The notes under the pieces are model-generated. The model was not told where the DNA came from, searched no databases, and saw nothing but the letters and a program-made list of their open reading frames with translations. Of a stretch of 64,000 nt of DNA, positions 1,389 to 35,298 are shown one piece after another. This DNA is from Roseateles hydrophilus. Lineage in GTDB: Bacteria; Pseudomonadota; Gammaproteobacteria; Burkholderiales; Burkholderiaceae_C. A program made the position numbers and the translations under genes. Location: NCBI RefSeq assembly GCF_026712245.1, contig NZ_JAPPUY010000005.1:186001-250000 (forward strand), read 5' to 3'. Numbering within the stretch: the stretch's first letter is position 1; each line of letters starts with the position of its first letter.

Positions 1389-2012
1389 TCACTTCACCCG
1401 CTGCGCGGCCAGTTCGGCGCGGAGCTTCTCGGCCTGATCCTCAAAGCGCACGGCGGTCAGTCCCAGGATGGGGTCGTCCAGCAGCGCGGTGTCCAGCGTG
1501 GAGCGGCCGGCGTAGCGCTGCACCAGCGCCTGGCCGAGGGCGTGCAGCTGGCGGTTCTTGGCCTCGGCGTCGGCCAGCGCCTGGGTGCTGCGCTCCAGCA
1601 ACTGCACCAGGGTCTGGTTGGCCTGCTGGCGGGCCTGGCTGTCCTGGCGGCTGGCGAGCAGCTGCTGTTGCAACGCCTGCTCGCGCTCGCCCGCCTGGGC
1701 CTGGCTTTGTTGCAGGGATTCCTTGGCAGCCTGCAGCTGGGCGCGCAGGGCGTCCAGCTCGGTGTCGCGGGCCTTGAGCTTCACGGCGTTGCCGGCGATG
1801 AGCGCGCGTGCGGCGGCTGCGTCCTGCCTGGCGCGGGCCCCCTCGGCTTCGGCCTTGGCCTTGTCGGCCTGCAGGCTGCTGTGCTGCTCCTGTGCGGCGC
1901 GCAGCGCGGCCTGGGCGCGGCGCAGGGCTTCGCGTTCCTTGGAGGGCTTGGCGTCCTGGGCCTGCGCGGTGAGGCTGGCAACGGCCAACAGGGCGATGGC
2001 AATGCGGCTCAC
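1389..2012 (-). CDS. Periplasmic coiled-coil protein, last gene of the TPS/Exb operon
   Basis: A 207-residue protein with a short signal peptide ending near AQAQ. Almost all the rest is an Ala/Gln/Glu/Lys/Arg-rich helix with heptad character (about residues 22-190), so it should form a long periplasmic coiled coil. I recognise no catalytic domain. It begins with GTG two bases after the porin stop codon, and a GAGG ribosome site lies inside the porin's last codons, so it is translationally coupled to the porin. By position it may be a structural or scaffolding partner of the porin/TonB assembly; that role is inference. Longer upstream extensions of this frame only shadow the porin gene. Confidence 0.75.
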   Translation of the reverse strand: MSRIAIALLAVASLTAQAQDAKPSKEREALRRAQAALRAAQEQHSSLQADKAKAEAEGARARQDAAAARALIAGNAVKLKARDTELDALRAQLQAAKESLQQSQAQAGEREQALQQQLLASRQDSQARQQANQTLVQLLERSTQALADAEAKNRQLHALGQALVQRYAGRSTLDTALLDDPILGLTAVRFEDQAEKLRAELAAQRVK

Positions 2013-2014
2013 GA

Positions 2015-3685
2015 TCAGAACCTCGCGTTGAGGTCGAGCTGGAAAACCTCGATGCGCAGCGGCGCACTGCTGAGGTTGCCGCTCAGGGACGAGGCGTCGC
2101 CCGGCACGGCCAGGAAGCGCACGCCGTCGTCGAGGTTGCGAGTGCTGGTCCAGCGGCCGCTGAGCCAGAAGTTGCGGTCCAGGCCGATGCTGCCGCCCAG
2201 GCTCCAGCCCTTGTAGTTGGTGCCGCCCAGGTGCCAGGTGGTGTCGGTGAAGCCGTCGATCCACGCGTCGCGCTGCACCAGGCGGTAGGCGGTGAAGGCC
2301 TGCCAGTCGCCGCGGCGCGCCAGTGTGGCCTTGCCGATCTGCAGGCGGCCCTGCAGCGCGGTGGTCTTCTCGCGCAGGTCGGCCAGCGGCGTGGTGACAC
2401 CGGTGCGGGCCTGGATGTCCTTCAGGTCGAAGCCGGTGTTCTTGATCCAGTCCAGCGTCAGGCTCGCGGGCACGGGCAGCACGTCGTCCAGCTGCAGGCT
2501 GGCGGTCAGGTTGACCGGGCGGAACTTCGCAGCCAGGCCCCAGGTGGGCGAGGCCGTGCTGGTGGGGTCGTTCAGGTTGATCAGCGTGTTGCCCTTCAGG
2601 CGCAGGCTGGACGGGTATTGCGACGCAAAGTAGTTGGTGGTGCCGTTCCTCGGGCCGCTGGGCGGCGGATTGGCCTCACGCTTGCCCTCCATGTGGCGGA
2701 AGTCGTAGGCCGCCAGGCCCAGCTTGAACTGCACACCGCGCGCGAGGTCGATCTCGCCGCCCACCTGGGCGCCGAGCAGCCACTTGTCCTGGCTGCTGAG
2801 GTTGAGTTCTTCCAGCGGGAACACGCCGGCCGTGGCGAACAGGCTGCGCTGCGGCGTGAACGCGTGGGTGAGCTTGGTGGCCACGCCGTCGAAGGCAAGG
2901 TCGTCGGCCCAGGCCAGGTCGGTGCTGAAGAAGGGGTTGGGCATGCGGCCGAAGTCGGCGGACAGGCCGTTGAAGAACAGCGGTGGCTGCCAGCGGAGGT
3001 AGGCGCGCTCCAGCCCCAGCGTGTAGCGGTTGAAGTTGCTGCCCAGCGTCTGCGAGGTGGAGGTGGCGCTGCTGCCGGTGTTGCCGGTGGCGATGCGCAG
3101 GCCGGCCAGCACCTGCTCGCTCAGCCGCACATCCACGCCCAGGCGGCCGCGCAGCGTGAGGCGCTGGCGGTCGGTGCCGGTGTTGCTGAGGTCGGGCGAC
3201 CAGGCGGGCGAGGCGGTCTGCGTGCGGTAAACCTCGGCGGGCAGGTTCTGGTCGTCGAAGAACTCGGCCTGGCCGCGCACGCGCAGGTCGCCGCTGAGCT
3301 TGATGCGGCCTACCCAGTCGGGCAGCGCGTCGGGCTGGCCCCAGCGCTCGCCCTTGGCCTGCGCCAGCACCTCGGCCTTGATCTCCTCGCGCATCTGCTG
3401 GCGCACGGTCTCGGGCACGTAGGGAATGCGCAGCACGTTGGGCTTGGCCGCGTCGGCCTGCGGCTGCGGCGCCGGGGCGGCGGCCGTGACCTGGGCTTGC
3501 TTCAGGATGGCCTCGGCCTTGTCGCGCGTCAGCAGGCCCTGGGCCACCAGAGCGTCGATGAGGGCCTGGGTCGTCGCGCGCAGGCGGGCGAGTTCTTCCT
3601 TGTCCGATGCCGCGGTGGTTTGCGCCTGGGCAGGCGCGGTGGCCGCGAGCAGGGCGGCGGTCAACAGGGTGAGGATGGGTTTCAT
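2015..3685 (-). CDS. Putative outer-membrane porin (Porin_5-like)
   Basis: A 556-residue exported protein. It has a signal peptide (residues 1-22, ending AQAQ), a short helical region (about 25-65), a conserved-looking linker (RIPYVPETVRQQMREEIK) and then a long stretch of alternating amphipathic segments ending in Phe (LNARF). That ending is typical of outer-membrane beta-barrels recognised by the Bam complex. Architecture and wording resemble the putative-porin family often annotated beside exbD/tonB genes. It lies 17 bases after the tonB-like gene in the same operon and could be the outer-membrane client of that energy-transducing set. Transport substrate is unknown. Confidence 0.85.
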   Translation of the reverse strand: MKPILTLLTAALLAATAPAQAQTTAASDKEELARLRATTQALIDALVAQGLLTRDKAEAILKQAQVTAAAPAPQPQADAAKPNVLRIPYVPETVRQQMREEIKAEVLAQAKGERWGQPDALPDWVGRIKLSGDLRVRGQAEFFDDQNLPAEVYRTQTASPAWSPDLSNTGTDRQRLTLRGRLGVDVRLSEQVLAGLRIATGNTGSSATSTSQTLGSNFNRYTLGLERAYLRWQPPLFFNGLSADFGRMPNPFFSTDLAWADDLAFDGVATKLTHAFTPQRSLFATAGVFPLEELNLSSQDKWLLGAQVGGEIDLARGVQFKLGLAAYDFRHMEGKREANPPPSGPRNGTTNYFASQYPSSLRLKGNTLINLNDPTSTASPTWGLAAKFRPVNLTASLQLDDVLPVPASLTLDWIKNTGFDLKDIQARTGVTTPLADLREKTTALQGRLQIGKATLARRGDWQAFTAYRLVQRDAWIDGFTDTTWHLGGTNYKGWSLGGSIGLDRNFWLSGRWTSTRNLDDGVRFLAVPGDASSLSGNLSSAPLRIEVFQLDLNARF

Positions 3686-3702
3686 GGGGCAGGGGAAGGC
3701 AA

Positions 3703-4380
3703 TCAGGCTTGGGGCCGCACGCTCAGGCGAAAGCGCATGGGCTGTGACAGGGCCAGCGCCGGCGGCGGCGGCAGCTTGAGCTGGCGGCGGGTTTCGTCGA
3801 GCGCGGTGCGCAGGGCGGTGTCGTTGCCGTCGTGGCCGCTGGGGCTCAGTTCGAAGCGCTGGATGGCGCCGTCCTTGTCGAGCCAGATGGCGAAGGTGGC
3901 GGTCAGCTGTTCGGCGTCGGCCTTGAGGTGGCGCTCGATCTCGCTTTGCAGCAGCTGGCGTGCGTTGTTGGCGTAGAAGCGCTCCTGCGCCCGATCCACG
4001 GCAGTGGCGGCCGAGCCGCCGCCGGGGCCCGTGGTCGGGGCGCCACCCGCGTAGTCGCGCGACACCGTGCCAGCCGAGAACGCGCTCGGCCCATCGCCCG
4101 CCGCGCCTTCCATCTTGAGGGACTCCGCCGGCTTGGGCGCCTCGGCCTGCTTGATCTGCTCCTCGCGCATCACCTGCTTGGGCTCGTCCTTGGGCGGCTC
4201 GGGCTTCTTCTCCTCCTTGGGCGGCGGCGGCGGGGGCGGCGGTGTGTCGGGCAAGATGGCGATCTTGGCCACCTGGCGCTTGGGCGCGTCGGGCTTGATG
4301 TTCTTGACGGCCCACCACACGGCCAGGCCCAGCAGCAGGCAGCCAGCGGCGACGAGGCCCTTGATGTGGCGCGCCTTCAT
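3703..4380 (-). CDS. tonB: TonB-like energy transducer
   Basis: A 225-residue protein with the TonB plan: a short cytoplasmic N-terminus, one transmembrane anchor (about residues 8-25), a periplasmic proline-rich spacer beginning with a run of eight prolines (about 47-54) and Lys/Pro/Glu-rich repeats, and a C-terminal domain (about 130-225) of roughly the size of a TonB C-terminal domain. It should link the ExbB/ExbD motor to an outer-membrane partner. Its ATG overlaps the stop of the preceding exbD gene by four bases. The C-terminal domain is divergent, so it may contact an unusual partner such as the neighbouring porin or TpsB rather than a classical siderophore receptor. Confidence 0.85.
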   Translation of the reverse strand: MKARHIKGLVAAGCLLLGLAVWWAVKNIKPDAPKRQVAKIAILPDTPPPPPPPPKEEKKPEPPKDEPKQVMREEQIKQAEAPKPAESLKMEGAAGDGPSAFSAGTVSRDYAGGAPTTGPGGGSAATAVDRAQERFYANNARQLLQSEIERHLKADAEQLTATFAIWLDKDGAIQRFELSPSGHDGNDTALRTALDETRRQLKLPPPPALALSQPMRFRLSVRPQA

Positions 4381-4778
4381 GTGCCTATCCTCGACGTGAC
4401 GAGGCCCATGTTCACGCCCAGCTTGTTGCACAGGTCGATGACGGCCACCACGCTGGCGTACTGCGCGCGTGCATCGCCCTTGATGGCGACGGACATCTGC
4501 GCGTCCTTCTGCTTGGCGGCCGTCAGCTGGCTTTCCAGCTCGGGCAGGCTCACGCCCACGCCGTTGATCAGCACGCCGCCGTCGGGCATCACCTGCACGA
4601 TCTTGAGGTCGTGCTTCTCGGCGCTGGGCTTATTGCTGGGCTTGGGCATGGTGATGCTCATGCCCTGCACCGAGGCGGTCGTCATCAGGATGAAGACGAC
4701 CAGCAGCACGTAGGCGAGGTCCAGCATCGGCGTGACGTTGATGCTGTCGTAGGGTTTGGCGTCCTGGTTGACCTGCAT
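4377..4778 (-). CDS. exbD: Biopolymer transport protein ExbD (second copy)
   Basis: A 133-residue ExbD/TolR-family protein. It has one N-terminal transmembrane helix following the motif INVTPMLDLAYVLLV. Asp20 in that helix corresponds to the proton-carrying aspartate of ExbD. A periplasmic domain of about 85 residues follows. It should form the proton-conducting stator with the ExbB-like protein encoded upstream. It starts one base after the stop of the other exbD and overlaps tonB by four bases at its end. Two unequal ExbD paralogues in one operon suggest a heterodimeric stator. Confidence 0.92.
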   Translation of the reverse strand: MQVNQDAKPYDSINVTPMLDLAYVLLVVFILMTTASVQGMSITMPKPSNKPSAEKHDLKIVQVMPDGGVLINGVGVSLPELESQLTAAKQKDAQMSVAIKGDARAQYASVVAVIDLCNKLGVNMGLVTSRIGT

Positions 4779-4779
4779 G

Positions 4780-5190
4780 TCAGCTCCCTGCCCGTTTGGT
4801 CACGAGGCCGATCTCGGTGATGTCCAGTTTCTTGGCCACCTCCAGCACCTGCATCACCTTGTCGTACTGCGCCGCCGCGTCCGCCTTCAGCACCACCGGC
4901 AGCGCCGGGTTGGCAGACTTGTACTGGGCGAGCGTGGACTGCAGCTGCGCCATGTCCACCGGGTAGGCGTCCAGGTACACGCCGCCGTCCGCGGTGATCG
5001 TGATCGCCCGCGTCTGCGGCTTGGCCAGGTTGTTGGCCGCCTGCGTCGTTGGTGAGTTCACCTTGACGCCCTGCACCGAGGCCGTCGTCAGGATGATGAA
5101 CACCACCAGCAGCACGTAGGCCAGGTCCAGCATCGGCGTGACGTTGATGTCGTCGTAGGGCTGGTTGTCGGACTTGACGTCACCCGCCAT
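4780..5190 (-). CDS. exbD: Biopolymer transport protein ExbD (first copy)
   Basis: A 136-residue ExbD/TolR-family protein with the same transmembrane motif as its downstream paralogue (DINVTPMLDLAYVLLVVF). Asp22 is the presumed proton-binding residue, and the periplasmic domain is short. The ATG at 5190 has a strong GGGAGG ribosome site; the frame stays open further upstream but without a comparable site. It lies about 145 bases after the exbB-like gene, the widest gap in the operon, and this gap holds several hairpins. The two ExbDs differ clearly outside the helix, so they are not a recent duplication. Confidence 0.92.
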   Translation of the reverse strand: MAGDVKSDNQPYDDINVTPMLDLAYVLLVVFIILTTASVQGVKVNSPTTQAANNLAKPQTRAITITADGGVYLDAYPVDMAQLQSTLAQYKSANPALPVVLKADAAAQYDKVMQVLEVAKKLDITEIGLVTKRAGS

Positions 5191-5254
5191 GGCAGCCTCC
5201 CGCGGTTGCGGGCCGAGCGCCGGGCCGCTCCCAAGCCGGCCCGTCATGGCGATG

Positions 5255-5318
5255 TGCATGCGGCTCAACGCCGCATGCATCGCCGCCCCCTCGGGGGGCC
5301 GGCCAACGTACGCGTTGG
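5255..5318. repeat. Cluster of three hairpins between exbB-like and exbD genes
   Basis: Three inverted repeats follow one another: a 10-bp stem around 5255-5264/5270-5279 (TGCATGCGGC and its complement), a GCCCCC/GGGGGC stem at 5285-5290/5294-5299, and a CCAACG/CGTTGG stem at 5303-5318 with loop TACG. None is followed by a T-run on either strand, so they look like REP-type or mRNA-processing structures rather than a terminator. In this place they could adjust the ExbB to ExbD ratio. Confidence 0.55.
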
Positions 5319-5334
5319 ACGAGGGGCTTCATGG

Positions 5335-7044
5335 TCACGGAGCCCCGTAGAGTTCAGCGACGCGAGTGATGAACTCGTCGATGAAGATCTGCATGTCCGA
5401 CGTCGCGTTCTTGATCTGCGACGCCAGCCAGTTGTAGCCAAACAGCGCGGGGATCGCGACGCCCAGGCCCGCCACCGTGGCCAGCAGCGCGGCCGCAATG
5501 CCCGGTGCGATCGCGTTCACGTTGACGTCGCCCGCGGCCGCGATGGCGGCAAAGGTGATCATCACGCCCACCACCGTGCCCAGCAGGCCCAGGAACGGGC
5601 CGCCCGAGATCGCGATGGTCAGCAGCACCATGCCGGAGTTCAGCTGCGCGTTCTCGCGCACGTAGTCGGCATCCACCGACGCCTTCACCGCGTCCAGCGA
5701 GGCGCCCGACAGCGGCTTGGCGCCCGCCTCGCCGACCTTGCGCTTGGCCAGCTCGCGCACACCGGCCTGGTAGAGCCGGTAGATGGGCGAGTTCGGATGC
5801 GGGGCGTGGTCCTCCAGCTTCAGCAGCTCATCGCTGGCCTCGCGAAAGCGCAGCACGAAGCTGCGGTTGGCCTTGGCCACGCGGCTCATCAGCAGGCTCT
5901 TGGACACCATCACCCACGCCGCGATCGCGAACATCACCGCCAGGATGATGATGACCACCCAGGCGTCCACCGTCAGGTTCTTGACGAGGATGCCCATGTA
6001 GCCATGCTCGCCGCCGCCCTCGGCTTCGGCGCTGTCCTTGGCCTCGCGGGTGGAGGCGACGAGCTTGCTCTCCGCGCCCTGCGCGCCGGCCGCCACGGCG
6101 AGCCAGTCGGCGCTGCGCAGCGTGGCCGCCACCTGCACCTCATCCATCAGGCCGCGCGCGCCTTCGCCCAGGCGCAGGCTGTTGCCCAGCGCCGGCGTGG
6201 CCAGGTCGCCCTGGGCCGCTTGGGCGCCATTGACGAACAGCGTCGCCTTGCCCAGGCCCAGCCGCAGCGCCACCTGCGTCCAGCGTGCGGCCGGCACCTC
6301 ACCGCCCGACACCTCGGCCCGGTCGGCGCGGGCCACCAGCTTGCCGCCGTTCAGGCTCAGCGTCAGCCCGCCCCAGTTCAGCAGCGTCGCGCGCTGCACG
6401 TCGTCCAGCTTCACCCACAGGCTCACTGTCAACTGGTTGCCGGCATCCACCACCGGCTTGTCGGACAGCGCATACACGATGGCCTCGCCGCCCAGCTTGG
6501 CGCTGGCGGCCAGCAGGCCGTTGGGCTCGGTCGCCAGTGCGCCCTGCGGCTTGACGGCGCCCAGCTGGTCGGCGCCGGCCGGCTTGTCGCTGAAGTGCAG
6601 CGCGATGAGGGTGGCCGCATCGAAGCCGCCTGCCACGCTCCCGTCGCTCTCGGCGGCCGCCTTGGGATTGCCGCCGTAGACGTAGAACTGGTTCTTGTCG
6701 CTGCCCGGCATCACGCTGGGCAACTGCACCCACAGCACGGCCAGCTCGTTGATGCCGTCGAAGCGCTCGATGCTGAACTTCAGCGGCGTCTTGTCGTCAC
6801 CGGCCACCACGCGCAGGTCGCTGCCGTCTTCCTTGGCGGCGGTGAAGTCGAAGTTGCCGCTGTGCAGGCGCACGGCCACGGCCACGCCGCTGGCGGTCTC
6901 CTTCGTTTCCAGCCCCTGGGCCGAGGTGTTCAGCGTGATCTTGGCGCGCTCGCTCCAGTCGGCGTTCCACCAAGCGTGGGCGGTAGCCGGCAGCAGTGCG
7001 GCCAGGGCGAGGGCGGTGAGTGCTTTGCGCATCGTCATGGTCAT
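5335..7044 (-). CDS. ExbB/TolQ/MotA-family proton channel fused to an exported DUF2341/LamG-like domain
   Basis: A 569-residue protein. A signal peptide (about 1-24) leads into a large beta-rich extracytoplasmic region: a DUF2341-like part starting WWNADWSERAKITL (about 25-150), then a concanavalin/LamG-like part (about 165-320). After a charged linker come three transmembrane segments (about 361-381, 470-502 and 514-540). The last two carry the ExbB signature GPFLGLLGTVVGVMITF. So the channel subunit of the TonB motor carries a built-in periplasmic ligand- or wall-binding domain. Three in-frame ATGs (7044, 7038, 7032) follow a GAAAG site; the second has the best spacing. The gene begins 10 bases after the giant tpsA stop, implying coupling. 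Confidence 0.88.
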   Translation of the reverse strand: MTMTMRKALTALALAALLPATAHAWWNADWSERAKITLNTSAQGLETKETASGVAVAVRLHSGNFDFTAAKEDGSDLRVVAGDDKTPLKFSIERFDGINELAVLWVQLPSVMPGSDKNQFYVYGGNPKAAAESDGSVAGGFDAATLIALHFSDKPAGADQLGAVKPQGALATEPNGLLAASAKLGGEAIVYALSDKPVVDAGNQLTVSLWVKLDDVQRATLLNWGGLTLSLNGGKLVARADRAEVSGGEVPAARWTQVALRLGLGKATLFVNGAQAAQGDLATPALGNSLRLGEGARGLMDEVQVAATLRSADWLAVAAGAQGAESKLVASTREAKDSAEAEGGGEHGYMGILVKNLTVDAWVVIIILAVMFAIAAWVMVSKSLLMSRVAKANRSFVLRFREASDELLKLEDHAPHPNSPIYRLYQAGVRELAKRKVGEAGAKPLSGASLDAVKASVDADYVRENAQLNSGMVLLTIAISGGPFLGLLGTVVGVMITFAAIAAAGDVNVNAIAPGIAAALLATVAGLGVAIPALFGYNWLASQIKNATSDMQIFIDEFITRVAELYGAP

Positions 7045-7054
7045 CTTTCGGGAA

Positions 7055-10000
7055 TCAGGAGGAGCCGAAGCCCAGGAACTCCAGCAGCAGGTTGCGCCGG
7101 CGGCGGCGGCGCTCGTCCTTGTCCTTGTCGGCGTCGGCCGGGCCGGCGGCCGTGGCGGCGGTGGGCTGGGTCACGGGCACGGCGATGGGCGGGGTGACCA
7201 CCGTCTCGGCCATCGTGCCGGTGCGGGCGCCGGTCACCTGGATGTCGTTCGCGTTCACCAGCCGCTCCGCGCCCAGGAAGGCATTGCCCTTGGAGCGGAT
7301 GCCGGCCTCGCCGGCATTGATCTCGCCGGTGGGGGCCTGCAGGTCCAGGTCGTTGCCGGCGGACAGCACGGCGATGCCGGAGCCGCTGAACGAGCCCGAG
7401 GTGTCGAACACCAGGTTGCCGTTGGCGTCCAGGCGCAGCACGGGCGCCGGGGCGCCGGTCACCGTCTTGGCGCCGCGGCCCGCGTCGATGTTGCCGGCCG
7501 ACGACCACATCAGCAGGTTGCCCTGCCCGATGGTGAACACGCGCGACTGGTTCACGTCGAAGTTCTGCGCCACCACGGCCGACACGTCGCCGCCGTTGAC
7601 GGTGACGATGCCCAGCTCCGTGGCCGCTTTGCTGCCCGCGCTCACCTCGCCGGCGTTCACGCCGCCGCCCGGGTTGAGCAGCGTGATGTCGGCGCTTTGC
7701 AGCGTCTTGATCTGGCTGGTGGGCATGCGCACCTGGGCGGCCGGGCGGGCCGCCAGCGTGCCGGCGTCCGCCACCGGGAACAGCAGGTTGATCGCCTGAT
7801 AGCCACTCGCATAGGCCGCCCAGCGTTCGTCACCCGCCAGCACCGCGGCGGCGCGGCCGGCGCGCTTGAGTTCGCCCATCAGCACGCGGTTCAGCCACGG
7901 GATCTGGCGCTCCAGCGGCAGCGCCTCGAAGCGGCGCAGCGTGTCAGCGGCGTCACTGCCGCGCTGGCCGCTCATCAAGGCCACGTAGTCGCCCAGCTTG
8001 GCCAGGTCGGCCGTGGCGGCCAGTTGCGCCAGCGCGGAGCTGCGCTGTGCAAGCGGCTGCGTGGCGAGCGTGGCCATCAGCACGCGGCTGACCAGCAACG
8101 ACTGCTGCGCGCTGCTCAAGGCCGGGGCCTGGGCCAGCGCCGCCGCATCACTGAGGGCCGACCACGCCGGGGCCAACCGGCTGGTCTGCTTGGCGAGTGC
8201 CTCGGTGACCTTGGCATCGTCGATGGGCAGGCCCATCAGCGCGGCCTGGCGCAGGCGCTGCTCGGCCGCATCCGGCCGTGCCGGCTGCGCGCGCACCTGC
8301 GCTGCCACCAGCCGGTCCAGCGTTTCGTTACCCAGGCGCTGGCGCAGCAGCGCCAGCTGTTCGGCTGGTGTGGCGGCGTCGAACGCGGCCGCCGTGCCCG
8401 TGCCGCCCAGCAGCACCCAGGCCTGGCCCAGCTTGCCGGCCAGGCCCGACGCGCCCAGCACCTGGAAGCCGGCGGCGCTGGCGCGGGCGTAGTCCTCGCC
8501 CTCGGCGCTCAGGCCGGCCACCACGGTGATGCGCGCGCCGCCCTCGGGCAGCAGCGCGCTGTTGGACAGGTTGCCGCGCGACACGATGCCGGTGCTGGTG
8601 GACAGGTCCACATCGCGGCCGGCCAGCACCAGCAGGTCGCCCGGGCCGGCCACTTCCAGCCCCAGGCCATTGCCGAAGCGCAGGTCGCGGCCGGCCTGCA
8701 GCTGGCTCAGCTCGCTGCGCTGGCCGCTGGCCGCTGGCTGGTGCTGCACGCTGACGTTGGACACCCGCAGGTCGCGGCCGCCCGTGGCGGCCAGCGGGCG
8801 CGTCGTGGCGATGTTGCTCAAGTCCAGATCGCCTTGCTGCGCCAGCAGTTGCACCGGCGCGCGGTTGCTGGTGTCCAGCACGGCGCGGCCGGCGTCGTCG
8901 CGTGCCAGCAGCAGGCCTTGCTGCAGCGTCTCGGCCATGCGGTTGAGTGCCTGCGTCTGCACCTGCGTGTTGGCGGTCTGCGGTGCCGTCAGCGACTGCA
9001 CGGACAGGCTGCTCAGCGTGACGCTGTCGCCCGCGGCAACCCAGGTGCGGGCGGCGCTCGGGTCAGCCGCCAGGCTCCAGGTTTGCAGTCCGTTGGCGAC
9101 GACGCTGCCCTGCGGCGCCAGCAGGCGCAGGTCCACCGGCACCACCTGGGCGCCGGGCAGCTCGCGCACGCCCTGCCACAGTGGCTGGCTCGCGCCGGCG
9201 TACTGCACATCGCCGCCCGCGCTCTGCAGCAGCAGGCTGGCCCGGCGGTCCAGCATCGGCGTCACGACGTTCTGGCCCAGCGCCTCGTTGTTGTCGTAGG
9301 TGGGGCTGGCGAACGAGAAGTTGCGCGCGCTGGCAATCGCCAGGTCGCCCGCCGCCTGCACGCGCACAGCGCCGTCCAGGTAGAGCAGTTGCACACCGGC
9401 TTCGCGGCCGACCGGGATGCCCTCGGCGGCACGGATGGCGCCACCGGCGCGCAGGTCCAGACCGCGTGAGCCCATGAACTGGCCGCTGACGACATCGCCG
9501 CCCGCCTGCACGCTGAGGCCACCGCCGCCGAACTGCAGCAGCCCGGCAGGCAGGCCTGTGGCCGCGGCGCCGGTGGCGTCCAGCACCAGGCCCGAGCTGA
9601 TGGCGGCGGCCTGCAGCTGCTGCACCGTGCCGCCGGCCTGCACAAGGATGCTGCCGCCGCCCAGCGTGGCCAGGCCTTGCGAGAAGCGGTCCTCGCGGCC
9701 GAACCAGGCCGTCGTGCCGTTGTTGTTGGCGCGCCAGTACCAGTCGGTGATGTAGCGCTGATCCTGGCCCAGCGCGCTGCCCAGCACGTCGCCACCGGCC
9801 TGCACGCGGATGGCGCCGCCGCGCTCGGTGAAGGGCATCAGGCCCGAGCTGCCCAGCACCGGGCCCAGCGTCTCGGCCAGCGCGTCCAGTGCCGTGGCGG
9901 GCAGCGGGTCGGCCGGCGCCGGTTCGGGCGCAGGCGTCGGCGCGGGCGCGGGCGCAGGTTGAGGCGCCGGTGCTGGTGTCGGCGCGGGCGCTGGGGCGGG

Positions 10001-13000: not shown

Positions 13001-16000
13001 GGCGTCCAGGTGGAGGCTGGCGAGCGTGCTGCCCTGGCCGCCGGCCTTGAGCGTGCCGCCGAGCAGCAGTTCACCTTGTGGGGCGGCGAGGCTGAGCTGG
13101 CCCGCGTCGCCGCTGCCGGCGGCGCTGACATCCAGGGTGGCGCCGCTGCCCACCGTCAGCAGGCCGTTGGCCGTGCTGAGGCTGAGGCGGCCGGCGGCGA
13201 GGTCCACGGGCACGGCGTTGGCGCCGCTGCCCAGCGTCTGGCGGCTGCCGGCCACGCTGAGGGTGCCCGCGTTGATGCTGAGGTCGCCCTGGCTGGCCAG
13301 GCTCAGCTGGCCGGCGGGCAGCAGCAGGTCGGTGTTGACGGCCATGCTGGCAGCCGACAGCGCCAGCTTGGCGGCGGTGCCGGCCGTGATGCTGGCGCGG
13401 GTGGGCTCCGCGGCCGGGTTGAGCGCGAGTGCGCCGGCCACGGTCCAGCGGCTGTCGGCGGGTGCCGTCGCGCCCGCGCGGGCGCTGATGGCGGGTGTGT
13501 TGGCGCTGAGGCTGCCCTGAACCGTGAGCTGGCTGTTGCCGCTCAGTGCGATGCCTTGCGACGCCGTCAGCGTGGTGCTGGCGGCCTGCCAGGCCTGGCT
13601 GCCCTCGGCCAGGCGCAGCTGGCCGGCGGCGGTCAGTGCGAGCGTGCCGGCAGCGGGCGCAGCGGCGGCCGCGGCATCAGGGCCTCGGCCGGTGGTGTTG
13701 GTGAGCACCAGGGTCTGGGCGCTCACCGCGGCGGTGTCAGCCGCGGCCTGCACGCGCAGGGCAGGGGCATCCAGCGTCAGCTGCCGCAGCGTCGTGCTGC
13801 CCAGGCTGGCGTTGCCGGCGAAGTCGAGCGTGGCGTAGCTGCGCAGCAGCAGCTCATCGGCCGTGGCGAGCTGCTGGAGCAGCGGGCCGGCCAGCTGCAG
13901 GCTGCCGTCCGCAGCGCTGCCGCCCAGCTGCAGGCGCGGCGCACCCAGGCCGAGGGCGGCGGCGGTGAGCGTGGCCCCGTCGACAATCGCGGCGCTGCCG
14001 GTGGCGTCCAGCTGCACACGCCCGCTGCTCGCCTGCAGCGAGGCGTTGCCTGCGAGCTTCAGCGTGCCCGTCTTCAGCTCGGCGCCTTGGCGCGTCAGCC
14101 CGCTGCCGGCGTGGGCGCTGAGCAGCACGGCCGCGCCGTCGCCCTGCAGCGTCCACTGCGTGGCCGCCGTGGTGCCGGCGGCCTGCAGTGGTGCGCCGGC
14201 TTGGACCGCGACCGTCTCGCGCGCCGTGAGCAGCAGGTTGGCCGCGGTCAGGGCGCGCGGCGGCTTCGGTGTGCCGTCGGGCACGCTTGGGGGCGTCTCG
14301 TCGTAGACGTTCACCGTCTGCGCGCGCACGGCCAGTGCGCCGGGTTGGCGAAGGTCGGTCGGCACAGCGCCGAGCACGAGCTTGTCGACCCCCAGTGCGT
14401 TGAGCTGCGCCATGCTGAGCCGCAGGCCGGCGGCGCTGTCCGGCGCGTCGCCTACCAGGATGTCGCTGGCGGCGAAGTAGGCGCTGCCGCCATGGCCGCC
14501 GTTGCCGGCGGCGACGCGCAGCGCGCTGCGCAGGTCGGCCTGCTGCGCGGCCACCACCAGTGCACCGGCGTCGCGGTTCAGCGCCGGCGTGGCGCTGTCG
14601 TTGCGGGTGGCGAGATCGCTGAAAAAGCCGTCGGCCGAGGCGAGGCGGATTTCGCTGTAGCGGCGCGCCTGCTTGCTGGTGAGCAGCTGCCAGGTGCTGG
14701 GCAGTGCATCGGTGACGCTCGTGCCGGCGGTGCTGAGCCGTGCGCCGACGACGAGGCTGCCGTCATCGCGCACCTGACTCTGGCCTTGGGCCAGCACCAG
14801 CGCGCTGTCGTCGCTGCGCTTGAGCGCGATGGGGCGCACCAGTACGGCGCCGTCCAGCGCGGCATAGCGGGCGGGCAGCAGGGTGTAGGTGCCGGTCAGC
14901 TGCGTGCCGTCGGCCAGCGTGACGCCGGTGCTGCCGAAGTCGATGCTGCGGCCCAGCGCCGGCAGGTTGGGCAGGCTGTTGTCGGCGGCGCCGGTGCTGC
15001 GCACGCTGGGCACCAGCGCATAGCTGCCGTTGGCGGCGCTGAAGATGTCGGTCGAGCCGCCGGGGCCGGCGACGAACTGCCAGCCCAGCAGCTGGCCGCC
15101 GCCGCTGAGGTCCACGCTGGCGCCGGCGGCGCTGGTGACGGTGGGCGCCTGCAGCGTGATGGCCTTGGCCGGGGTGGCGCTGAGGGTGTCGCCGGGCTTG
15201 CTGCCGGGACCGCTCCAGTTCTCGCCGTTCCAGCTGCCGAACAACAGGCTGCGGCCGCCGGCGCTGACGGAGGTCTCGCTGCCGTCCAGCAGCGCGATGC
15301 TGTCGCGGGCGTCCAGCGTGAGGCTGCCCTCGGGCGCGCGCAGCCGGCCGCCCTGGCGGATGCTGGCGGCCTGCAGCGTCAGGCGGCCGCCGGCGCTGAA
15401 GGGCAGGTCGGGCGCTTTGCCGTCGGCGCTGGGCGGGCTGTCGATGCTGATCTGGCGGCCGGGCGCGGCGATGACGAAGCCGGTGTCGCTGGCCGGGAAG
15501 ACCTGCGCGGCGCTCAGGCGCAGATCGCCGGCCGTGGTGAGGCGGCCGTCGCCGACCACTTCGGCGCTGGGCTTTTGCAGCAGCAGGTCGCCGGCGCTGA
15601 GCAGGTTGAGCTGGCCCACGCCCTGGCTGAGCACCTGGCCGCTGACGTCCAGCCGCTGGCGGGCGGCCAGCGTGAGCGTGGCGCTGCCGGCGCTGGCAGT
15701 GAAGGCGTCCCGCTGAAGTTGGCCGAACTCCAGCGCTGTACGGCCGTTGATCCAGCTCAGGTAGGTGGCCGACAGCGTGCTGCTGCTGGGCAGTGCGCTG
15801 GGCTGCACGGCCAGCACGGGTGCGTCCAGGCGCAGCGCGCCCGCGATGTCCAGCGACGTGGCGGCGTCGATCAGCAGGCGCTCGCGCGACGCCAGCGACA
15901 GCTCGGTGACGCCCGAGCGTGTGATCCACGGCGCGTCCACGCGGGCCACGCCGCGCAAGGTACCGGCGCTGCCCAGCGTGTCGGGCGTCAGCGTGGTGCT

Positions 16001-19000
16001 GAGGGCGCCGTTGTCGGCAGCAAGCAGCAACTCGCGCACGGCCGGCAGGCGCACGGTGTCGGTGAGGCCGGCTTCCAGGTTGATGCTCAGTCGGCCGCCG
16101 GCCGCGCCGGTGCCGCCGCCGGCGGCCCGCAGCGTGCCTTCCAGCAGCAGGTCGCCGTTGGCGTTCACGCTCAGCGAGCCGGCGTTGCTGGCCAGGGTCT
16201 GGCGCGTGACGCGGTCGCCGGCCGACGTGGTTTCGCGCACGTCGACGCTGCCGCTCGTGCCGCGGATGTCGATCTCGGCGCCCTGCTGCACGATGAGGCT
16301 GGTGGCGTAGCTCTGCGCCGTGGCGCCGGTGTTCAGGCTGACGCTGCCGCCTGCGAGCACGCGGCCGTTCAGCAGGCCGTCGGTGCTGGGCAGGGTCTGG
16401 GTGATGCCGGCCACGTCGATGCGGCTGCTGGCGCCCAGCCACAGGTGGCGTTGCAGCGGGAAGTAGCGCGAGTCCTCGCCCGTGGCGAGACTCAGGCTGA
16501 CCTGGCCCGCCGGTGCGGTGATGCTGCCGTCCAGACGCAGCTGCTGGCGGGCCGACAGCTGCACCTTGGCGCCAGCGTCCAGCGACAGCGAGGCGCCCGC
16601 GCCGAACAGCAGCCGGCCGGCAGGCTGGTCTGCCGTGATGCCACTGGCGCTGAGCGTGATGTCGATGGGCTGCGGGTAGCTGCGCGGCGGCGTGGCCAGC
16701 GAGAACACCGTGTCCATGGCCGTGCCGGTGGCACGGTTGCGCGTGGCGCCATCGGCCTGCCACAGCTGCAGGCGCGGCGCCATCTGCGTGCCGGCTTCGA
16801 CGCTGAGCAGGTCGCGCCCGTCCAGCGCGTAGCTCTGGAAGCCGCCGCGGTTGAAGAAGTCAGCGGTCAGCATCAGCGCACCGCCGGCGTCGGCCGCGGG
16901 GCCGACGCGGATCTGCGGCGCGGCGAGCGTGAACTTGCCGCCCTGTGTCACGCCATGGCCGCGCAGGCTGACCTCGTCCAGCGCCGACACGGACGCGCCG
17001 CCGCGCAGCGTCAGCGCGCCGGCCGTGCCGCCGCACAGGGTATTGGCCTTGCAGCTGCCAATCGCCTGCGCGCCGGTCAGCAGCGCGCCGCTGGACACGT
17101 CCAGCACCGTGGCCGCGCCGAGCTGCAGGTCGCTGCCGGCCTGCAGCGTGATGCTGCCGCCGGCCGTCGCAGCGGGGCGGGCGGCGTCGGTCAGCGTGGC
17201 GTCCAGCGCGGCGTTGACCCAGCGGCCCGAGGCGTCCAGCCGCACGCCGTCGGCCACGCGCACATCGCCCGCGCCGCTGCGCAGCGTGATGCTGCCGGCG
17301 GTGCTGCGAATGTCGGCCTCTGCACTGACGGTGCCGCTGCTGGACTGCAGTTGCACCACGCCGCGCGTGCCGAGTTGCAGCGTGTCGGCCAGCACCACAT
17401 CGCCCACGGCGGTGACGCTGACATCGTTGAAGCCCGACGCGGCCAGGCCGGCCAGCGACAGCCCGGAGGCAAGGCCATCCAGCGCCGTGGCTGCCCCGGC
17501 GGTGTCGCCGCGCAGCAGCGACCAGCGGCTGTCGTCCAGCGCGTTGCCGCTGCTGCGCAGCCGGAAGTCGCGCAGCACCGGGCCGGCGTAGGTGGCGGTG
17601 CCGAACGCGTTGACGTGGGTGGCCGCGCCCAGTGCCAGTTTGGCTGCAGCAGCGGCAGCGTCCAGGCCGGCGAGCTGGCGCTCGCCCTGCGTGACGCTGC
17701 CGTTCACTTGACCGTCCAGCACCAGGCGGGGCGCGACGATGCTGAGGCTGCCGCCGCTCTGGCCGGTGACGTAGCCCGGCTCCAGGCGTGACGGGCTGAC
17801 TAGTCCGTAGCTAGGGCGCACGCCCCAGCGGTCGTAGCTTGCCTTGGCCGTGCCGGCGTTGACGATGCCGGTGTAGAGCAGGTCCTTGGGGGCGTCGTTC
17901 AGCGTGTAGGCGCGGCCGTTGCTGGCGTAGAGCTGTGTGGGCGCCACCTGGGCGGCCGTGTAGTTCACCTGCCCGCCCGAGACATCCAGGCGCGCGCTGG
18001 CATGCGTGACGATGGCCTCGCCGGCCACCAGCTTCAGCGAGCCGCCGCTGGCCAGCCGTTCGCTGGCGCTGCGCTGCTGGGCCGCGCGGTAGTTGGCGAG
18101 GTCGCCCAGGATGGGCGAGGCCTGGCGGATGTCCAGCGTGACCTTGTTGCGGAACAGCAGGCCGTCCTTCTGCAGCGGCGCGTCCTTCAGGTCGTTGCTG
18201 CCCAGCAGCTCGGTGGTGACGAACTCGCGCGCGACGCTGACCGTGGTGTCGGTCGTGCCGGCGACGTCGATGCGGGCGTTGGCGTCGATGACGATGCGCC
18301 CGCCCGTGGCCGTCAGCGGGTTGCTGGTGACCAGGCCGCCGAAGGGGTGGAGCGTGTCCAGCGCGCGCAACTCGGCCATGGCGCCAGGGGCCACGACGCG
18401 GGCGCCTTCGGCGAGCGTGATGCTGCCGCCGGCCAGGTCCAGCCGCGAGCGGGTGAAGGTGGCGTTGTCGTCGCTGGTCAGCGGCTTGCCGTCGGCACCG
18501 GCGTTGGCGGGGGTGATCTCGGTGACGCTGCCGGTGGTCAGCGTCAGCGTGCCGCTGCGCTGAGCTTGCTTGTAGGCACCTTTGTCGCCCTGCGGGATGA
18601 GCGCGCCGGTGTCCCGATAGGTCTCGCCCGCATCGCCCTGCGCCAACAGCAGGATGGAGCCGTTCTGCGACACGCTGGTCGTTGCGCTGACGCGGCCGGC
18701 CTGGTTGACGGCCAGGCCCACCAGCGTGGCGTTGCCGCGCGGCACGCTGATGCTGCCGGTGTTCTCCACCTTGCCGTCACCTGAGGCCAGGTCGCCCCGG
18801 CCCACTTCGACGAGCAGGCCGCGCAGCGCGGGCACGTTGGGGTTGGCCTCGGAGGCGTACAGCGGCTCGGTGGTCGGCAGCTTGTAGAAGACCTCGGCCC
18901 CCGCGCCCAACACGACCTGGCCGCCAGGGGCCGTCAGCGAGCCGGCGTTCTCCACGCGCTTGGCGTAGAGCTGGATGCGGCCGCCTTCGCCGGTGACGAT

Positions 19001-19609
19001 TTGCGCGCCCGGCTCGACGCGGATGAAGTTCTTCGCGTCGACGTAGTCGGCCGCCGCGCCGTCGTAGCGCAGCGCGGCGGCGGCGCCTGTGATGTTGCTG
19101 ACGAAGCCGTTGGCGTAGTCCGCGTCCTTGGGCGCGAGCGTGGTGGCCAGCAGCGCGCCCACGTCCACGCGGGCGTCCTTGCCGAACAGGATGCCGTTGC
19201 GGTTGTAGAGCAGGATCTCGCCGCCGTTCGTGGCCTTGAGCTGGCCCAGGATCAGGCTGGGGCTGACGCCGCCAATGCGGTTCAGCGCGCTGGAGCCCGG
19301 CAGCGCCATGTCGAAGGTGACCGAGCTGTCCGCGTCGATGTGGAAGCTGTTCCACTGGTAGATGGCGCGCTGGCTGGTCTGGCCGATCGTCATGTCCACG
19401 CCGCCACGCGCATTGGCCGTGTTCACCGGCGCGGCCGCGCCCGCGCCGTAGACGCGCCAGCCCACGGCCGGTTGCGGCACCTTGAACGGCGGCGGCGGTG
19501 GCGCCGCCACGGGCGCCTGAGCCAGGGCGACCAAGGGCAGGCTGGCGGCCAGGGCCGCCACGAGCGGGCTCAGCAGCAGGGCGGTCTTGGGCAAGGCGGG
19601 CTTGGACAT
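7055..19609 (-). CDS. Giant filamentous-haemagglutinin-like exoprotein (TpsA)
   Basis: A 4184-residue secreted adhesin of the two-partner secretion pathway. It has a signal peptide (about 1-32), then a TPS/haemagglutination-activity domain (about 45-300) with YQWNSFHID and the hallmark [16 protein letters not shown] (NRNG at 136-139). A very long beta-helical repeat region follows (to about 2375). Next is a Pro/Ala-rich region (about 2380-3240) broken by folded segments. More beta-helix comes after it, then a C-terminal part like the DUF3739 domain of FHA-family proteins ([25 protein letters not shown]). The end is basic (RRRRRR) then [11 protein letters not shown]. Start ATG 19609 is 7 bases after tpsB; an in-frame extension upstream only shadows tpsB. 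No toxin domain is recognised. Confidence 0.93.
11190..11505 (-). repeat. Three tandem copies of a 102-108 bp unit in tpsA
   Basis: Units begin at about 11190, 11292 and 11400 with the same opening GCCGGTGAGGGC. They share the order of Pro/Ala, Pro/Ser and Pro/Glu blocks (encoding [11 protein letters not shown]-type stretches). Copies differ at scattered positions and by one hexamer. This is a recent-looking tandem amplification inside the proline-rich region. Confidence 0.75.
11882..11941 (-). repeat. Perfect 30-bp tandem duplication in tpsA
   Basis: Two identical 30-base units (11882-11911 and 11912-11941) encode a repeated [10 protein letters not shown] decapeptide. Identity at every base suggests a very recent slippage or recombination event. 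Confidence 0.85.
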
Positions 19610-19616
19610 GGCGGGC

Positions 19617-21278
19617 TCAGAAACGCAGGGCGGCGCGCATGTGCACGCGCTCGGTGGGCAGGCTGCGGCCCGCAACATCACGGTGGCGGCGCGCCCAGTC
19701 CAGCGCCAGGCTCAGGCCCGGCTGCAGGCCCAGCCGCAGGCCCAGGCCGGTGCCCAGCAGCGTGCTGCGGTGCGGCTGGCCGGGCTCGGGGTCGATCAGC
19801 GTCACGCGGGCCACATCGCTGAAGCCGAAAACCACCAGCTCGGTGAAGGGCGGTAGCGGTGCGCCGTCGAACGCCTTCAGCAGCGCCGGTGCGAGGTTGC
19901 GGCTGCGCAGTTCCAGCGAGGCCAGCACACCGTAGTCCGCCGACGCGGCGGCTTCGCTGTAGCCGCGCACCGAGTCGGCGCCGCCCACGGCGAATTGCTC
20001 GGCGCTGACCAGCGGCTGGCTGGCGATCTGGCCCGCCACGCGCAGCGCCCATTCGGTGGGGCCGGCGCGCGTGCTGCCGCGCCAGTCGAGCTTGATCGTC
20101 GTGAAGCCACCGTCCGCGCCGCGGCGCTTGCAGGCGAATTGGTCGGCGATGCCGAAGCTGCCGTCGGCCAGCTGGCAGTCACGGCGCGTCTGCCGCCACA
20201 CCGGGCGCAGGCCGAAGGTGGCGCTGGCGCTCAGCTGCTGCTGCCCCCACGTGCCCCACCAGCTGCCGTTGTAGGCCGCCTGCAGCGGCGCATAGCGCAG
20301 TGGCGAGCCGATGGTGCCAGCGCTGGTGAGCACATCTTCGGTCAGGTCCTTCAGGTCAAAGCCCAGCGACAGCCCGTGCGCGGCGTTGCTGGCGACGCGG
20401 TTCAGCCCATAGCGCAGCCCCAGCGTCGTGCCCTTGCCCAGCACACGGGTGCCGCCCAGGCTGTCGATGTCGCTGCTGGAGTTGACGGCGCTGACGCTCA
20501 GCGAGTCGCCATCGCCCAGGGGCACGAGGTAGTTCAGTACCAGCACTTGCGACTGGCTGGGCTGCATGGGCGCGGTGAGGGCCGTCAGCGACAGCGAGTG
20601 CTCGCGTTGGAACAGGTTGTCGTAGTGCAGGTTGGCCGTGGCGCGCAGAGCCTCCGTGCCGGCGGCGGCCGCGTTGTTCAGTTCCACGCTGCCACCCAAC
20701 GGCAGCTTGTCGCTGACCTTGAGCTCGGCCTCCACGGTGCCGGGCTCGCGGCCTGGCCGCAGCACCGGCTGCACGCGGCGCTCGGGGGTTTGCGACAGCG
20801 CGGCGATCTGCTGCTGCACGACGTTGAAGTTGGGCACCGTGCCCTCGGCCAGTTCGGTGGCGACGGCGCGGATGCGGCCCTGGTCGAAGTAGCGCGAGCC
20901 GGTCACGTAGAGCTTGTCCACGCGCCCTTCCAGCACCACCAGGCGCACCACGCCGCCGTCGATGCGCTGCTCGGGCACATCGACGAACACGGTCAGGTAG
21001 CCCGCGCCTTGGTAGGCCTTCTCCAGCGCGCTGCGCGCGCCCTCGATGGCGGCCATGTCGCGCTTCTCGCCCATGAAGGGCATGACGGCCGCTTCCACCT
21101 GCGTGGGTTTGAGGCGCGTGTTGCCTTCGACCTCGAACTCCAGGATGTCGAACTGCAGGGCCTGCGGCTGCGGCTGTGCGAACGCTGGCAGCGCCTGGGC
21201 GAACAGCCAGCAGGCGAGGGCAGTCAGCAAAAGAAACCAGCGCGCCCGCAGCGGGGCGCGCGTCAGTCCGGCGTCCAT
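19617..21278 (-). CDS. TpsB outer-membrane transporter (ShlB/FhaC/HecB family)
   Basis: A 553-residue Omp85-superfamily protein that exports the neighbouring TpsA across the outer membrane. It has a signal peptide (about 1-34, ending PAFAQ), POTRA domains (about 45-200: [34 protein letters not shown]) and a 16-strand barrel ending in Phe (RAALRF). The family's plug motif is present as VRGY within [13 protein letters not shown], and the motif-4 region follows. It sits immediately upstream of tpsA with 7 bases between, the normal TPS order. Its ATG lies only 36 bases past the T-run of a terminator, leaving little room for its own promoter. Confidence 0.94.
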
Positions 21279-26875: not shown

Positions 26876-27245
26876 ACAGGCTCCCGTCCGGCGCGCGGCC
26901 GGCGGCGCCGCTGCGCACATCGGCCACCTGGCCGGGCAGGTCGGTGCCGGCCGCAGGCGGCAGCGTGATCCAGCTGTCGGCGCTGCCGGTCAGCGGGTCC
27001 TCGGGCACGCGGCGCAGATAGCGGTCCTGCACCAGCTGGGCCAGCGTGTCGGGGTGGCGGCCCTTGTCGGCGGCGTACTTGTCCAGCGCGTCGCGCATGA
27101 CGGCCAGCGAGCTGCGCAGGCTGGCCGCCTTGGCGCGCTCCAGCGAGGCGAAGTAGCGCGGCGCGGTGATGCCGGCCAGCAGCGCAACGATGGCCATGAC
27201 CACGATCAACTCGATGAGGGTGAACCCATGGGCCGTGCGTGCCAT
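26862..27245 (-). CDS. Type II secretion pseudopilin (GspG-like)
   Basis: A 127-residue pseudopilin with the cleavage and methylation motif HGFTLIELIVVMAIVALLAG, Glu5 present, and a short globular domain with the major-pseudopilin features RHPDTLAQLV, then LRRVPEDPLTG. Its ATG overlaps the stop of the upstream pseudopilin in a TGATG, so the pair is coupled; a GTG one codon earlier is also possible. Confidence 0.88.
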   Translation of the reverse strand: MARTAHGFTLIELIVVMAIVALLAGITAPRYFASLERAKAASLRSSLAVMRDALDKYAADKGRHPDTLAQLVQDRYLRRVPEDPLTGSADSWITLPPAAGTDLPGQVADVRSGAAGRAPDGSLYADW

Positions 27246-35293: not shown

Positions 35294-35298
35294 GGCGC

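What the first reader, a model, noticed from the sequence alone, without database searches (positions are those of the whole stretch)
1389..21278. One operon joins two-partner secretion to its own ExbB/ExbD/TonB motor and porin
Eight minus-strand genes (tpsB, tpsA, exbB-like, exbD, exbD, tonB-like, porin, coiled coil) are packed with gaps of -4 to +17 bases, except one of about 145. Classical two-partner secretion needs only TpsB and no energy source. A dedicated proton motor with an outer-membrane porin in the same transcript suggests an energised step in export, folding, release or retraction of the 4184-residue exoprotein, or a surface filament that gates the porin. The arrangement is seen directly; the mechanism is inference. 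I believe similar neighbourhoods are annotated piecemeal in other proteobacterial genomes, but I know of no described function.
Basis: partly seen in the sequence, partly recalled or inferred. Interest (0 to 1): 0.82.

Follow-up and report, generated by a model that had tools for sequence, protein, structure and literature searches.

The report
Giant surface protein with own motor
One operon makes a giant exported surface protein together with a proton-driven envelope motor and an outer-membrane porin; the same set recurs in many bacteria, including the Pseudomonas Pdt locus, and what the motor does there has not been shown.

Summary
In 369 class genomes the DUF2341-LamG-ExbB fusion (22 genomes), DUF3739-type TpsA (23) and full-length Porin_5 (24) fall in the same 24 genomes; 21 have all three. 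Of 17 other TPS loci from these genomes none shows the motor in the stretch fetched. The TpsBs form one supported group. [quoted passage not shown] that it defines a class of two-partner secretion I did not find in print. New details: TpsAs end in a disordered tail with a conserved ΦxVEΦLGFG motif, the porin has a conserved N-terminal VPYVPE-like motif, and secretion (GspD/E/F-like), phosphatase and phosphate-binding-like genes recur nearby. I favour the motor acting on a retained TpsA tail (0.4) over energised import through the porin (0.3); neither is shown.

The parts
19617..21278 (-). tpsB, outer-membrane TPS transporter (POTRA_2 + ShlB), 553 aa; member of the motor-linked TpsB group
7055..19609 (-). 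tpsA, 4184-aa exoprotein: TPS domain (18644-19414), proline-rich repeats, DUF3739 (7214-7522)
7064..7090 (-). conserved C-terminal tail motif LLLEFLGFG of TpsA, in a region predicted disordered
5335..7044 (-). DUF2341-LamG-ExbB fusion: signal peptide (by eye), DUF2341 (6634-6828) and ConA-like LamG (6103-6468), then TolQ-like ExbB (5389-5781)
4780..5190 (-). exbD, first copy, with the PMLDLAYV motif that holds the Asp (5113-5136)
4377..4778 (-). exbD, second copy, same motif kept (4707-4730); tandem copies are seen in the Roseateles/Aquabacterium-like loci, not in the other class genomes fetched
3703..4380 (-). TonB/TolA-like protein: N-terminal hydrophobic helix and proline-rich linker (by eye), Gly-rich stretch, TonB_2 C-terminal domain
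2015..3685 (-). Porin_5 (PF16930) outer-membrane protein; conserved LRIPYVPE motif at 3410-3433 before the barrel
1389..2012 (-). 207-aa coiled-coil protein (GTG start); counterpart of PA0697 by position
21370..22482 (-). PEP-CTERM protein directly upstream of tpsB; PEP/VPLPA-CTERM proteins recur beside the cassette, but this one resembles them mainly at the sorting tail
   Evidence: tblastn with it found no other
22679..24112 (-). PBP-like protein (family distantly related to PBP_like_2 through P0012); terminator-like stem at 22620-22649 follows it
24232..25005 (-). second PEP-CTERM protein
26862..35724 (-). type II secretion genes: pseudopilin-type 26862-27769, GspD-like secretin 27735-30212, PilN-like 30906-32189, GspE-like 31951-33516, GspF-like 34106-35461, GspG-like 35299-35724
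   Evidence: the GspG reading is by eye
38320..40341 (+). alkaline phosphatase (PF00245); relatives beside the cassette in G111 and beside a TPS-less motor in Methylomagnum

Best explanation
Identity (shown by sequence comparison): a conserved class of two-partner secretion in which a DUF3739-type giant exoprotein and its own TpsB group come with a dedicated ExbB(DUF2341-LamG)/ExbD/TonB motor, a Porin_5 protein and a coiled-coil protein; by its published gene table the P. aeruginosa Pdt locus is a member. Mechanism (inferred): TpsA is threaded out by TpsB without help, but its C-terminal end, the DUF3739 beta-solenoid followed by a flexible tail with the ΦxVEΦLGFG motif, is held back at or under the outer membrane. 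There the tail docks as an extra beta strand on the periplasmic domain of the dedicated TonB (or on the porin), and the proton motor pulls on it, so that the surface filament is anchored and can be tensioned, retracted or let go. Porin, LamG and coiled-coil parts hold the complex in the envelope. Purpose (inferred from neighbours and from Pseudomonas regulation): surface scavenging or attachment when phosphate is short.
For: Within 369 genomes DUF3739, rather than the TPS domain as such, tracks the motor: 21 genomes with both against 22 and 23 in all, hypergeometric 6e-31; 17 other TPS loci from these genomes show none of the motor, porin or coiled-coil genes in their stretches. Second sample of 249 genomes: the same 6 genomes for both. 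TpsA tail motif: strict pattern in 43 of 53, relaxed in 55 of 58 (misses: one cut by a contig end, and both TpsAs of G526, one with a variant by eye), against 30 of 2332 background frames; 6 of 6 further TpsA ends on plasmids; 0 of 6 control TpsAs that were labelled by my profile and have a stop. Many of these TpsAs are close relatives, so the counts are not independent. The AF2 model leaves the tail (283-330, nearly all under pLDDT 50) outside the folded DUF3739 part, as for a docking peptide. G570 has three DUF3739 places but one fusion, and Llamas 2009 describes three tpsA loci with one tpsB-exbBD-PA0696 set in other genomes (passages): the motor goes with the shared export machinery rather than with one particular TpsA. 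The ExbB part is TolQ-like (8vlw TM-score 0.87 by target length); T490 and T523 are invariant in 26 of 26 and both ExbDs keep the PMLD motif.
Against: No experiment or complex model shows the tail binding TonB, and the tail was not tested against a TonB-box consensus. Porin_5 is as obligate as the motor (24 of 24 genomes) and has its own conserved N-terminal motif (62 of 63), which fits rival 1 at least as well. Three class genomes and Methylomagnum have fusion-ExbD-TonB sets without TPS of their own, and G374 has a DUF2341-type gene cut off by a contig end in a genome without DUF3739, so the motor core may serve another client. In the fusions the Glu found in three of five other ExbB/TolQ-type proteins of this genome is Ala or Ser, so motor activity is likely, not certain. 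One of 31 long control frames also matched the relaxed tail pattern. P. aeruginosa mutants in tonB (PA0695), PA0696, tpsA and tpsB were as virulent as wild type in zebrafish (passages).
Confidence: 0.4

Rival explanations
1. Energised import: TpsA is a surface captor (as HxuA is for haem), Porin_5 is the outer-membrane gate, and the dedicated TonB opens or drives it through the porin's conserved N-terminal motif; the cargo is a phosphorus compound.
For: Full-length Porin_5 occurs in exactly the 24 genomes that have the fusion or DUF3739. Its N-terminal VPYVPE-like motif is in 62 of 63. PBP-like proteins lie beside the cassette in 16 of the 24 class genomes, window included, and DING-type phosphate-binding proteins in G294, G502 and two Burkholderia plasmids. 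Alkaline phosphatases lie near it in the window and G111, and beside a TPS-less motor in Methylomagnum. In P. aeruginosa PA0690 and PA0696 rise under phosphate limitation (passages).
Against: Porin_5 is not a plugged TonB-dependent receptor by Pfam. G570 has three TpsA places for one fusion. No PhoB-box-like site upstream of the window's cassette beats background. Import of any substrate is undemonstrated.
Confidence: 0.3
2. The motor energises TpsB-dependent export or surface folding of the very large TpsA.
For: Motor-linked TpsBs form one group, support 100/99, apart from 14 other TpsBs; tpsB lies directly beside the fusion gene in many loci; PpiC-type isomerases recur nearby.
Against: Type V translocation is reported to need no hydrolysable energy source or gradient (passages of PMC5422565); control TPS frames of 3098 to 3750 residues lie wholly in their stretches with no motor there (L099, L108, L111); TpsB shows no extra domain in Pfam.
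Confidence: 0.15
3. Ton and TPS are co-regulated but mechanically independent: the Ton set serves unrelated outer-membrane receptors under the same stress.
For: TPS-less motor sets exist; regulation is shared in P. aeruginosa (passages).
Against: Near-perfect co-occurrence in 369 and 249 genomes with several gene orders, one TpsB group, and a tail motif shared by the motor-linked TpsAs.
Confidence: 0.07
4. A signalling device: the motor and TonB sense tension or cargo on TpsA and feed a VreA/VreR/VreI-type sigma system.
For: ECF sigma and FecR-type genes lie beside the cassette in G294, G526, G570, a Klebsiella plasmid and a Methylosinus plasmid; VreA has a TolA/TonB-like domain (passages).
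Against: No ECF/FecR pair among the window genes scanned; among the flanking proteins compared only three genomes showed the pair.
Confidence: 0.05

Closest known systems
P. aeruginosa pdtA/pdtB-exbB2-exbD2-tonB4-PA0696..PA0701 (PUMA3/VreI regulon)
   Same: Same gene set by the published table: TpsA, TpsB, ExbB, ExbD, TonB, putative porin, PA0697, then YbjN, PpiC, LysR. T2SS and phosphatase genes are near in both.
   Different: In the window tpsB-tpsA lead the operon, whereas pdtA has its own promoter in P. aeruginosa; exbD is doubled; no vreAIR-like genes were seen among the genes scanned; tpsA carries proline-rich repeats. I could not read the PAO1 proteins, so DUF2341 in ExbB2 and DUF3739 in PdtA were not checked there.
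Two-partner secretion (type Vb), e.g. FhaC/FhaB
   Same: TPS domain at the TpsA N-terminus and ShlB-type TpsB with POTRA domain.
   Different: A dedicated proton motor, porin and coiled-coil protein; a conserved C-terminal DUF3739 plus tail; own TpsB group.
TonB-ExbB-ExbD and TolQ-TolR-TolA motors
   Same: ExbB with TolQ-like fold, ExbD with Asp motif, TonB_2/TolA-like protein.
   Different: ExbB carries an N-terminal DUF2341-LamG domain; no TonB-dependent receptor in the operon.
HxuCBA of Haemophilus influenzae
   Same: TPS captor genes joined with a TonB-linked outer-membrane uptake step (PMC5422565, passages).
   Different: HxuC is a TonB-dependent transporter; here there is a Porin_5 protein and a dedicated motor.
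GIT motors with DUF2341 appendage (PMC12505986)
   Same: The paper notes DUF2341 N-terminal appendages on A-subunits, function unknown (passages).
   Different: It draws no link to TPS in the passages read.

Membership tests
Two-partner secretion (type Vb) | TpsA N-terminal TPS domain (PF05860) | tested here: met
   E 1.9e-21
Two-partner secretion (type Vb) | TpsB with POTRA and ShlB barrel | tested here: met
   PF08479 and PF03865
Two-partner secretion (type Vb) | export without an energy source | not testable with these tools
   no experiment here
TonB-ExbB-ExbD/TolQRA motor | MotA_ExbB domain and TolQ-like fold | tested here: met
   PF01618 6.9e-28; 8vlw TM 0.87 by target length
TonB-ExbB-ExbD/TolQRA motor | ExbD helix Asp and ExbB TM Thr residues | tested here: met
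   both ExbDs have PMLD; T490 and T523 invariant in 26; residue roles recalled
TonB-ExbB-ExbD/TolQRA motor | Glu in the third TM helix of ExbB | tested here: not met
   Ala in the window; of 64 fusions an unaligned pattern gave 41 Ala, 13 Ser, 1 Gly, 9 unmatched; Glu in 3 of 5 other ExbB/TolQ-type proteins of the genome; its importance is recalled
TonB-dependent transporter operon | receptor with plug and barrel | tested here: not met
   of the operon's proteins only Porin_5 is an outer-membrane channel candidate besides TpsB
P. aeruginosa Pdt/PUMA3-type locus | TpsA, TpsB, ExbB, ExbD, TonB, porin, small periplasmic protein together | tested here: met
   against the table in PMC7035377
P. aeruginosa Pdt/PUMA3-type locus | VreI-type sigma factor genes beside it | tested here: not met
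   no ECF/FecR pair among the window genes scanned; rest of the genome not searched for them
P. aeruginosa Pdt/PUMA3-type locus | phosphate-starvation control | tested here: inconclusive
   no Pho box upstream of the cassette; one 2-mismatch site before the T2SS genes, expected 0.16 per window

The most novel reading that the evidence does not exclude
A proton-powered type V system: the conserved C-terminal tail of TpsA is the client strand of its own TonB, so that a filament thousands of residues long can be reeled, tensioned or released from the cell surface, carrying captured phosphorus cargo to the Porin_5 gate.
Probability: 0.25. Interest if true: 0.87.

Novelty: new variant of a known kind. 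Interest (0 to 1): 0.64.

Why it matters
Two-partner secretion is the standard case of export without an energy source. Here one of its classes, recognisable by DUF3739 and its own TpsB group, is tied to a dedicated proton motor and porin in alpha-, beta- and gammaproteobacteria and Verrucomicrobiota. That gives three families of unknown role (DUF3739, PF16930, DUF2341-ExbB) a shared context, makes a published but unexplained Pseudomonas locus testable, and offers a short conserved tail as the first thing to remove.

Tried and rejected
PhoB control of the window's cassette: best sites upstream had 6-7 mismatches, no better than background. Fold search of the TpsA C-terminal model: nothing below E 0.3. 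ConA-like matches of the fusion's N-terminal part include receptor-binding domains of clostridial neurotoxins; I read these as jelly-roll fold only. PBP-like P0011 has no Pfam hit and no convincing solved relative; its link to PBP_like_2 runs through P0012. TPS-less motors: no neighbour with the tail motif was seen by eye among the tails printed. One search held 106 of the 186 flanking proteins found; one search compared all 186 plus P0008. Alignment A1 used 25 of the 41 loci plus the window, A3 20 loci plus the window. The first porin-motif pattern matched 43 of 63; I widened it after seeing the misses, and the background rose from 1 to 35 of 3516. The relaxed tail pattern was likewise drawn up after seeing the strict misses. 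The tree counts G030 twice (identical rows), so 32 different motor TpsBs; several control rows are long branches and the root is by midpoint only. The control TPS stretches are limited: 5 of 17 are 8 kb or shorter, and most reach only about 4 kb on the N-terminal side of tpsA.
Full report
WHAT IS THERE. Pfam gives TpsB POTRA_2 and ShlB, TpsA a TPS domain and a C-terminal DUF3739 (PF12545), the third gene DUF2341, Laminin_G_3 and MotA_ExbB in one chain, two ExbDs, a weak TonB_2 domain, and Porin_5 over nearly its whole profile; the last gene has no family. The window lies in a 4.77-Mb genome whose nearest named relatives by the fusion protein are Pelomonas, Roseateles and unclassified Burkholderiales. 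The fusion occurs once in it; five other ExbB-type matches lack the DUF2341-LamG part.

IT IS CONSERVED. One scan of named genomes with the fusion gave 41 loci. With iterated profiles of the window's proteins, 39 of 41 hold a TPS gene, 41 ExbD, 41 TonB, 38 the porin and 37 the coiled coil in the stretch fetched; the two without TPS (L025, L043) begin inside the fusion gene at a contig edge, and of those without porin two (L039, L041) are short contigs while L040 has room and shows none. The loci include beta- and gammaproteobacteria and Verrucomicrobiota (Opitutae, Methylacidiphilales), and gene order varies: tpsB-tpsA-motor-porin-coiled coil, or tpsB-motor-porin-coiled coil-tpsA, among others. 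In plasmid records 10 of 11 stretches round the matches hold a tpsB. Aquabacterium olei pTB101 has the window's order including two exbDs, preceded by a PEP-CTERM gene and a PBP-like relative.

CO-OCCURRENCE. In one set of 369 genomes of the class, the DUF2341-LamG-TM part matched over its length in 22 genomes (25 places), DUF3739 in 23, and Porin_5 at more than 460 bits in 24. Dropped before the count: 13 genomes with only partial or weak rows, most of them in other large proteins, and 20 genomes with Porin_5 rows of at most 118 bits. All 24 porin genomes are those with the fusion or DUF3739, and 21 have all three; the chance of such overlaps is 6e-31, 2e-33 and 1e-35 by the hypergeometric law, which ignores relatedness. 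The misses look like broken contigs: in G124 the fusion, in G121 and G220 DUF3739 lies at a contig end; a further look found the end of an ExbB, then ExbD, TonB, porin and coiled coil on another contig of G121, and TonB, porin and coiled-coil pieces in G220. One dropped row is undecided: G374 has a DUF2341-type frame cut by a contig end and neither DUF3739 nor full Porin_5. On the same contig as a fusion lie 20 of the 23 DUF3739 genomes; G330 has them on two contigs. In a second set of 249 genomes of the phylum, fusion (E up to 1e-30) and DUF3739 each occur in the same six genomes. As a control, 39 TPS-domain places in the 24 genomes include 18 without DUF3739; 17 were fetched, and none shows an ExbB, ExbD, TonB, porin or coiled-coil match in its stretch, though 5 of the stretches are 8 kb or shorter. 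The eighteenth is a short frame beside the TPS-less motor of G139.

EXCEPTIONS. G139, G156 and G170 each have a second fusion-ExbD-TonB set without porin, coiled coil or its own tpsA/tpsB; that of G139 lies among type II secretion genes about 10 kb from the first cassette. Methylomagnum has a set with a coiled-coil match but no TPS, near two alkaline phosphatases. The motor core may thus serve something else.

A GROUP OF ITS OWN. In a maximum-likelihood tree the 33 motor-linked TpsB rows (32 different) stand on one side of a branch with support 100/99 from 14 other TpsBs taken from genomes that carry the cassette. This fits a class inherited together rather than assembled anew in each place; the root is not known.

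THE TAIL. Aligned TpsA ends show DUF3739, then a variable low-complexity linker, then a short motif such as [18 protein letters not shown] or ISVEILGFG. A strict pattern finds it in 43 of 53; nine of the other ten show a variant by eye and one is cut by a contig end. With five more TpsAs a relaxed pattern finds 55 of 58, the misses being that cut one and both TpsAs of G526, and 6 of 6 on plasmids. Background is 3 of 3514 (strict, last 60 residues) and 30 of 2332 (relaxed, last 130); 1 of 31 long control frames matched the relaxed form. Many of the TpsAs are close Roseateles-type relatives. The AF2 model of the last 330 residues has a helical part (2-89), a well-predicted beta part (DUF3739) and a disordered end from 283 that holds the motif. 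A conserved strand-like motif in a disordered end is what a docking peptide looks like; that it docks on TonB is my inference.

THE MOTOR AND THE PORIN. The fusion model has mean pLDDT 81; its C-terminal part matches TolQ and ExbB structures, and its N-terminal part ConA-like folds. T490 and T523 are invariant in 26 of 26 fusions; where three of five other ExbB/TolQ-type proteins of this genome have Glu, the fusions have Ala or Ser. The TonB-like proteins aligned share a proline-rich linker and mostly a Gly-rich stretch before the C-terminal domain. The porins carry a VPYVPE-like motif before the barrel in 62 of 63 by the widened pattern, and the 63rd has RHVTYVPE by eye.

NEIGHBOURS AND PURPOSE. 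Upstream on the same strand lie a PEP-CTERM gene, a PBP-like gene, a second PEP-CTERM gene, a LuxR-type regulator and type II secretion genes; an alkaline phosphatase follows on the other strand. The PBP-like family recurs beside the cassette in 16 of the 24 class genomes, window included (two queries together), DING-type phosphate-binding proteins in G294, G502 and two Burkholderia plasmids. GspD-, GspE- or GspF-like genes, in some cases a single gene that could also belong to a pilus system, lie near it in G041, G127, G139, G297, G502, L021, L040, L047, a Cupriavidus plasmid (annotated gsp genes) and two Burkholderia plasmids. A Pho-box-like site with 2 mismatches lies just before the window's T2SS genes; 0.16 such sites are expected per window. 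This is suggestive only.

WHAT IS KNOWN. Passages of PMC2729926, PMC4971064, PMC7035377 and PMC9769906 describe in P. aeruginosa pdtA, pdtB, exbB2, exbD2, tonB4, PA0696 (putative porin), PA0697, PA0698 and PA0699 as part of one VreI- and PhoB-controlled region, with phdA to PA0701 transcribed from one promoter and pdtA from another, next to the Hxc T2SS and its phosphatases; the Ton set is called still uncharacterized and PA0696-PA0700 of unknown function. Llamas 2009 noted the link of TPS, ExbBD and PA0696 in a few genera. G502, with a DUF6124 gene before tpsB and PpiC and LysR genes behind, shows most of that order, as does a Klebsiella plasmid. In the library searched, DUF3739 is named in no paper and DUF2341 in six, of which by title none concerns TPS; searches for TPS with Ton motor terms listed no paper that by title treats motor-linked TPS as a class. 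I read passages only, and most subscription papers, Faure 2014 among them, are not held.

VERDICT. I hold the tail-client model at 0.4, energised import through the porin at 0.3 and energised export at 0.15; the mending of counts in this version did not change these odds.

Noticed in passing
window 9911-12472 (within tpsA): Proline-rich tandem repeats: 714 of 4218 residues of the open frame lie in 30-residue windows with at least 9 Pro. Similar stretches (112-713 residues) occur in 20 Roseateles-type loci, against 0-37 residues in the TpsAs of the other class and phylum genomes fetched.
   Followed up: partly
L092 with L075 (G139 C3:154119): A second DUF2341-ExbB/ExbD/TonB set sits among type II secretion genes.
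   Followed up: partly
L129 11602-22293 (Methylomagnum plasmid): A TPS-less fusion-ExbD-TonB set near two alkaline phosphatase genes, one 58% identical to the window's.
   Followed up: partly
window 35765-35782, minus strand: Pho-box-like CCGTCATGCGGCCGTCAT just before a GspG-like gene, the only one with at most 2 mismatches in 64 kb.
   Followed up: partly
L126 (Klebsiella quasipneumoniae pKqq_SB98_1): The whole cassette with sigma factor and DUF4880 (FecR-type) genes on a plasmid typed conjugative, so the system may travel.
   Followed up: no
L116-L118 (G570 C105): Three DUF3739 places in one genome with a single fusion; the two TpsAs read carry a second strand-like QVxGAG motif after the LGFG motif, as do Klebsiella and Variovorax TpsAs.
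   Followed up: partly
window 22620-22649, minus strand: 13-pair terminator-like stem between the PBP-like and PEP-CTERM genes, suggesting that the PBP-like gene is a separate transcript.
   Followed up: no
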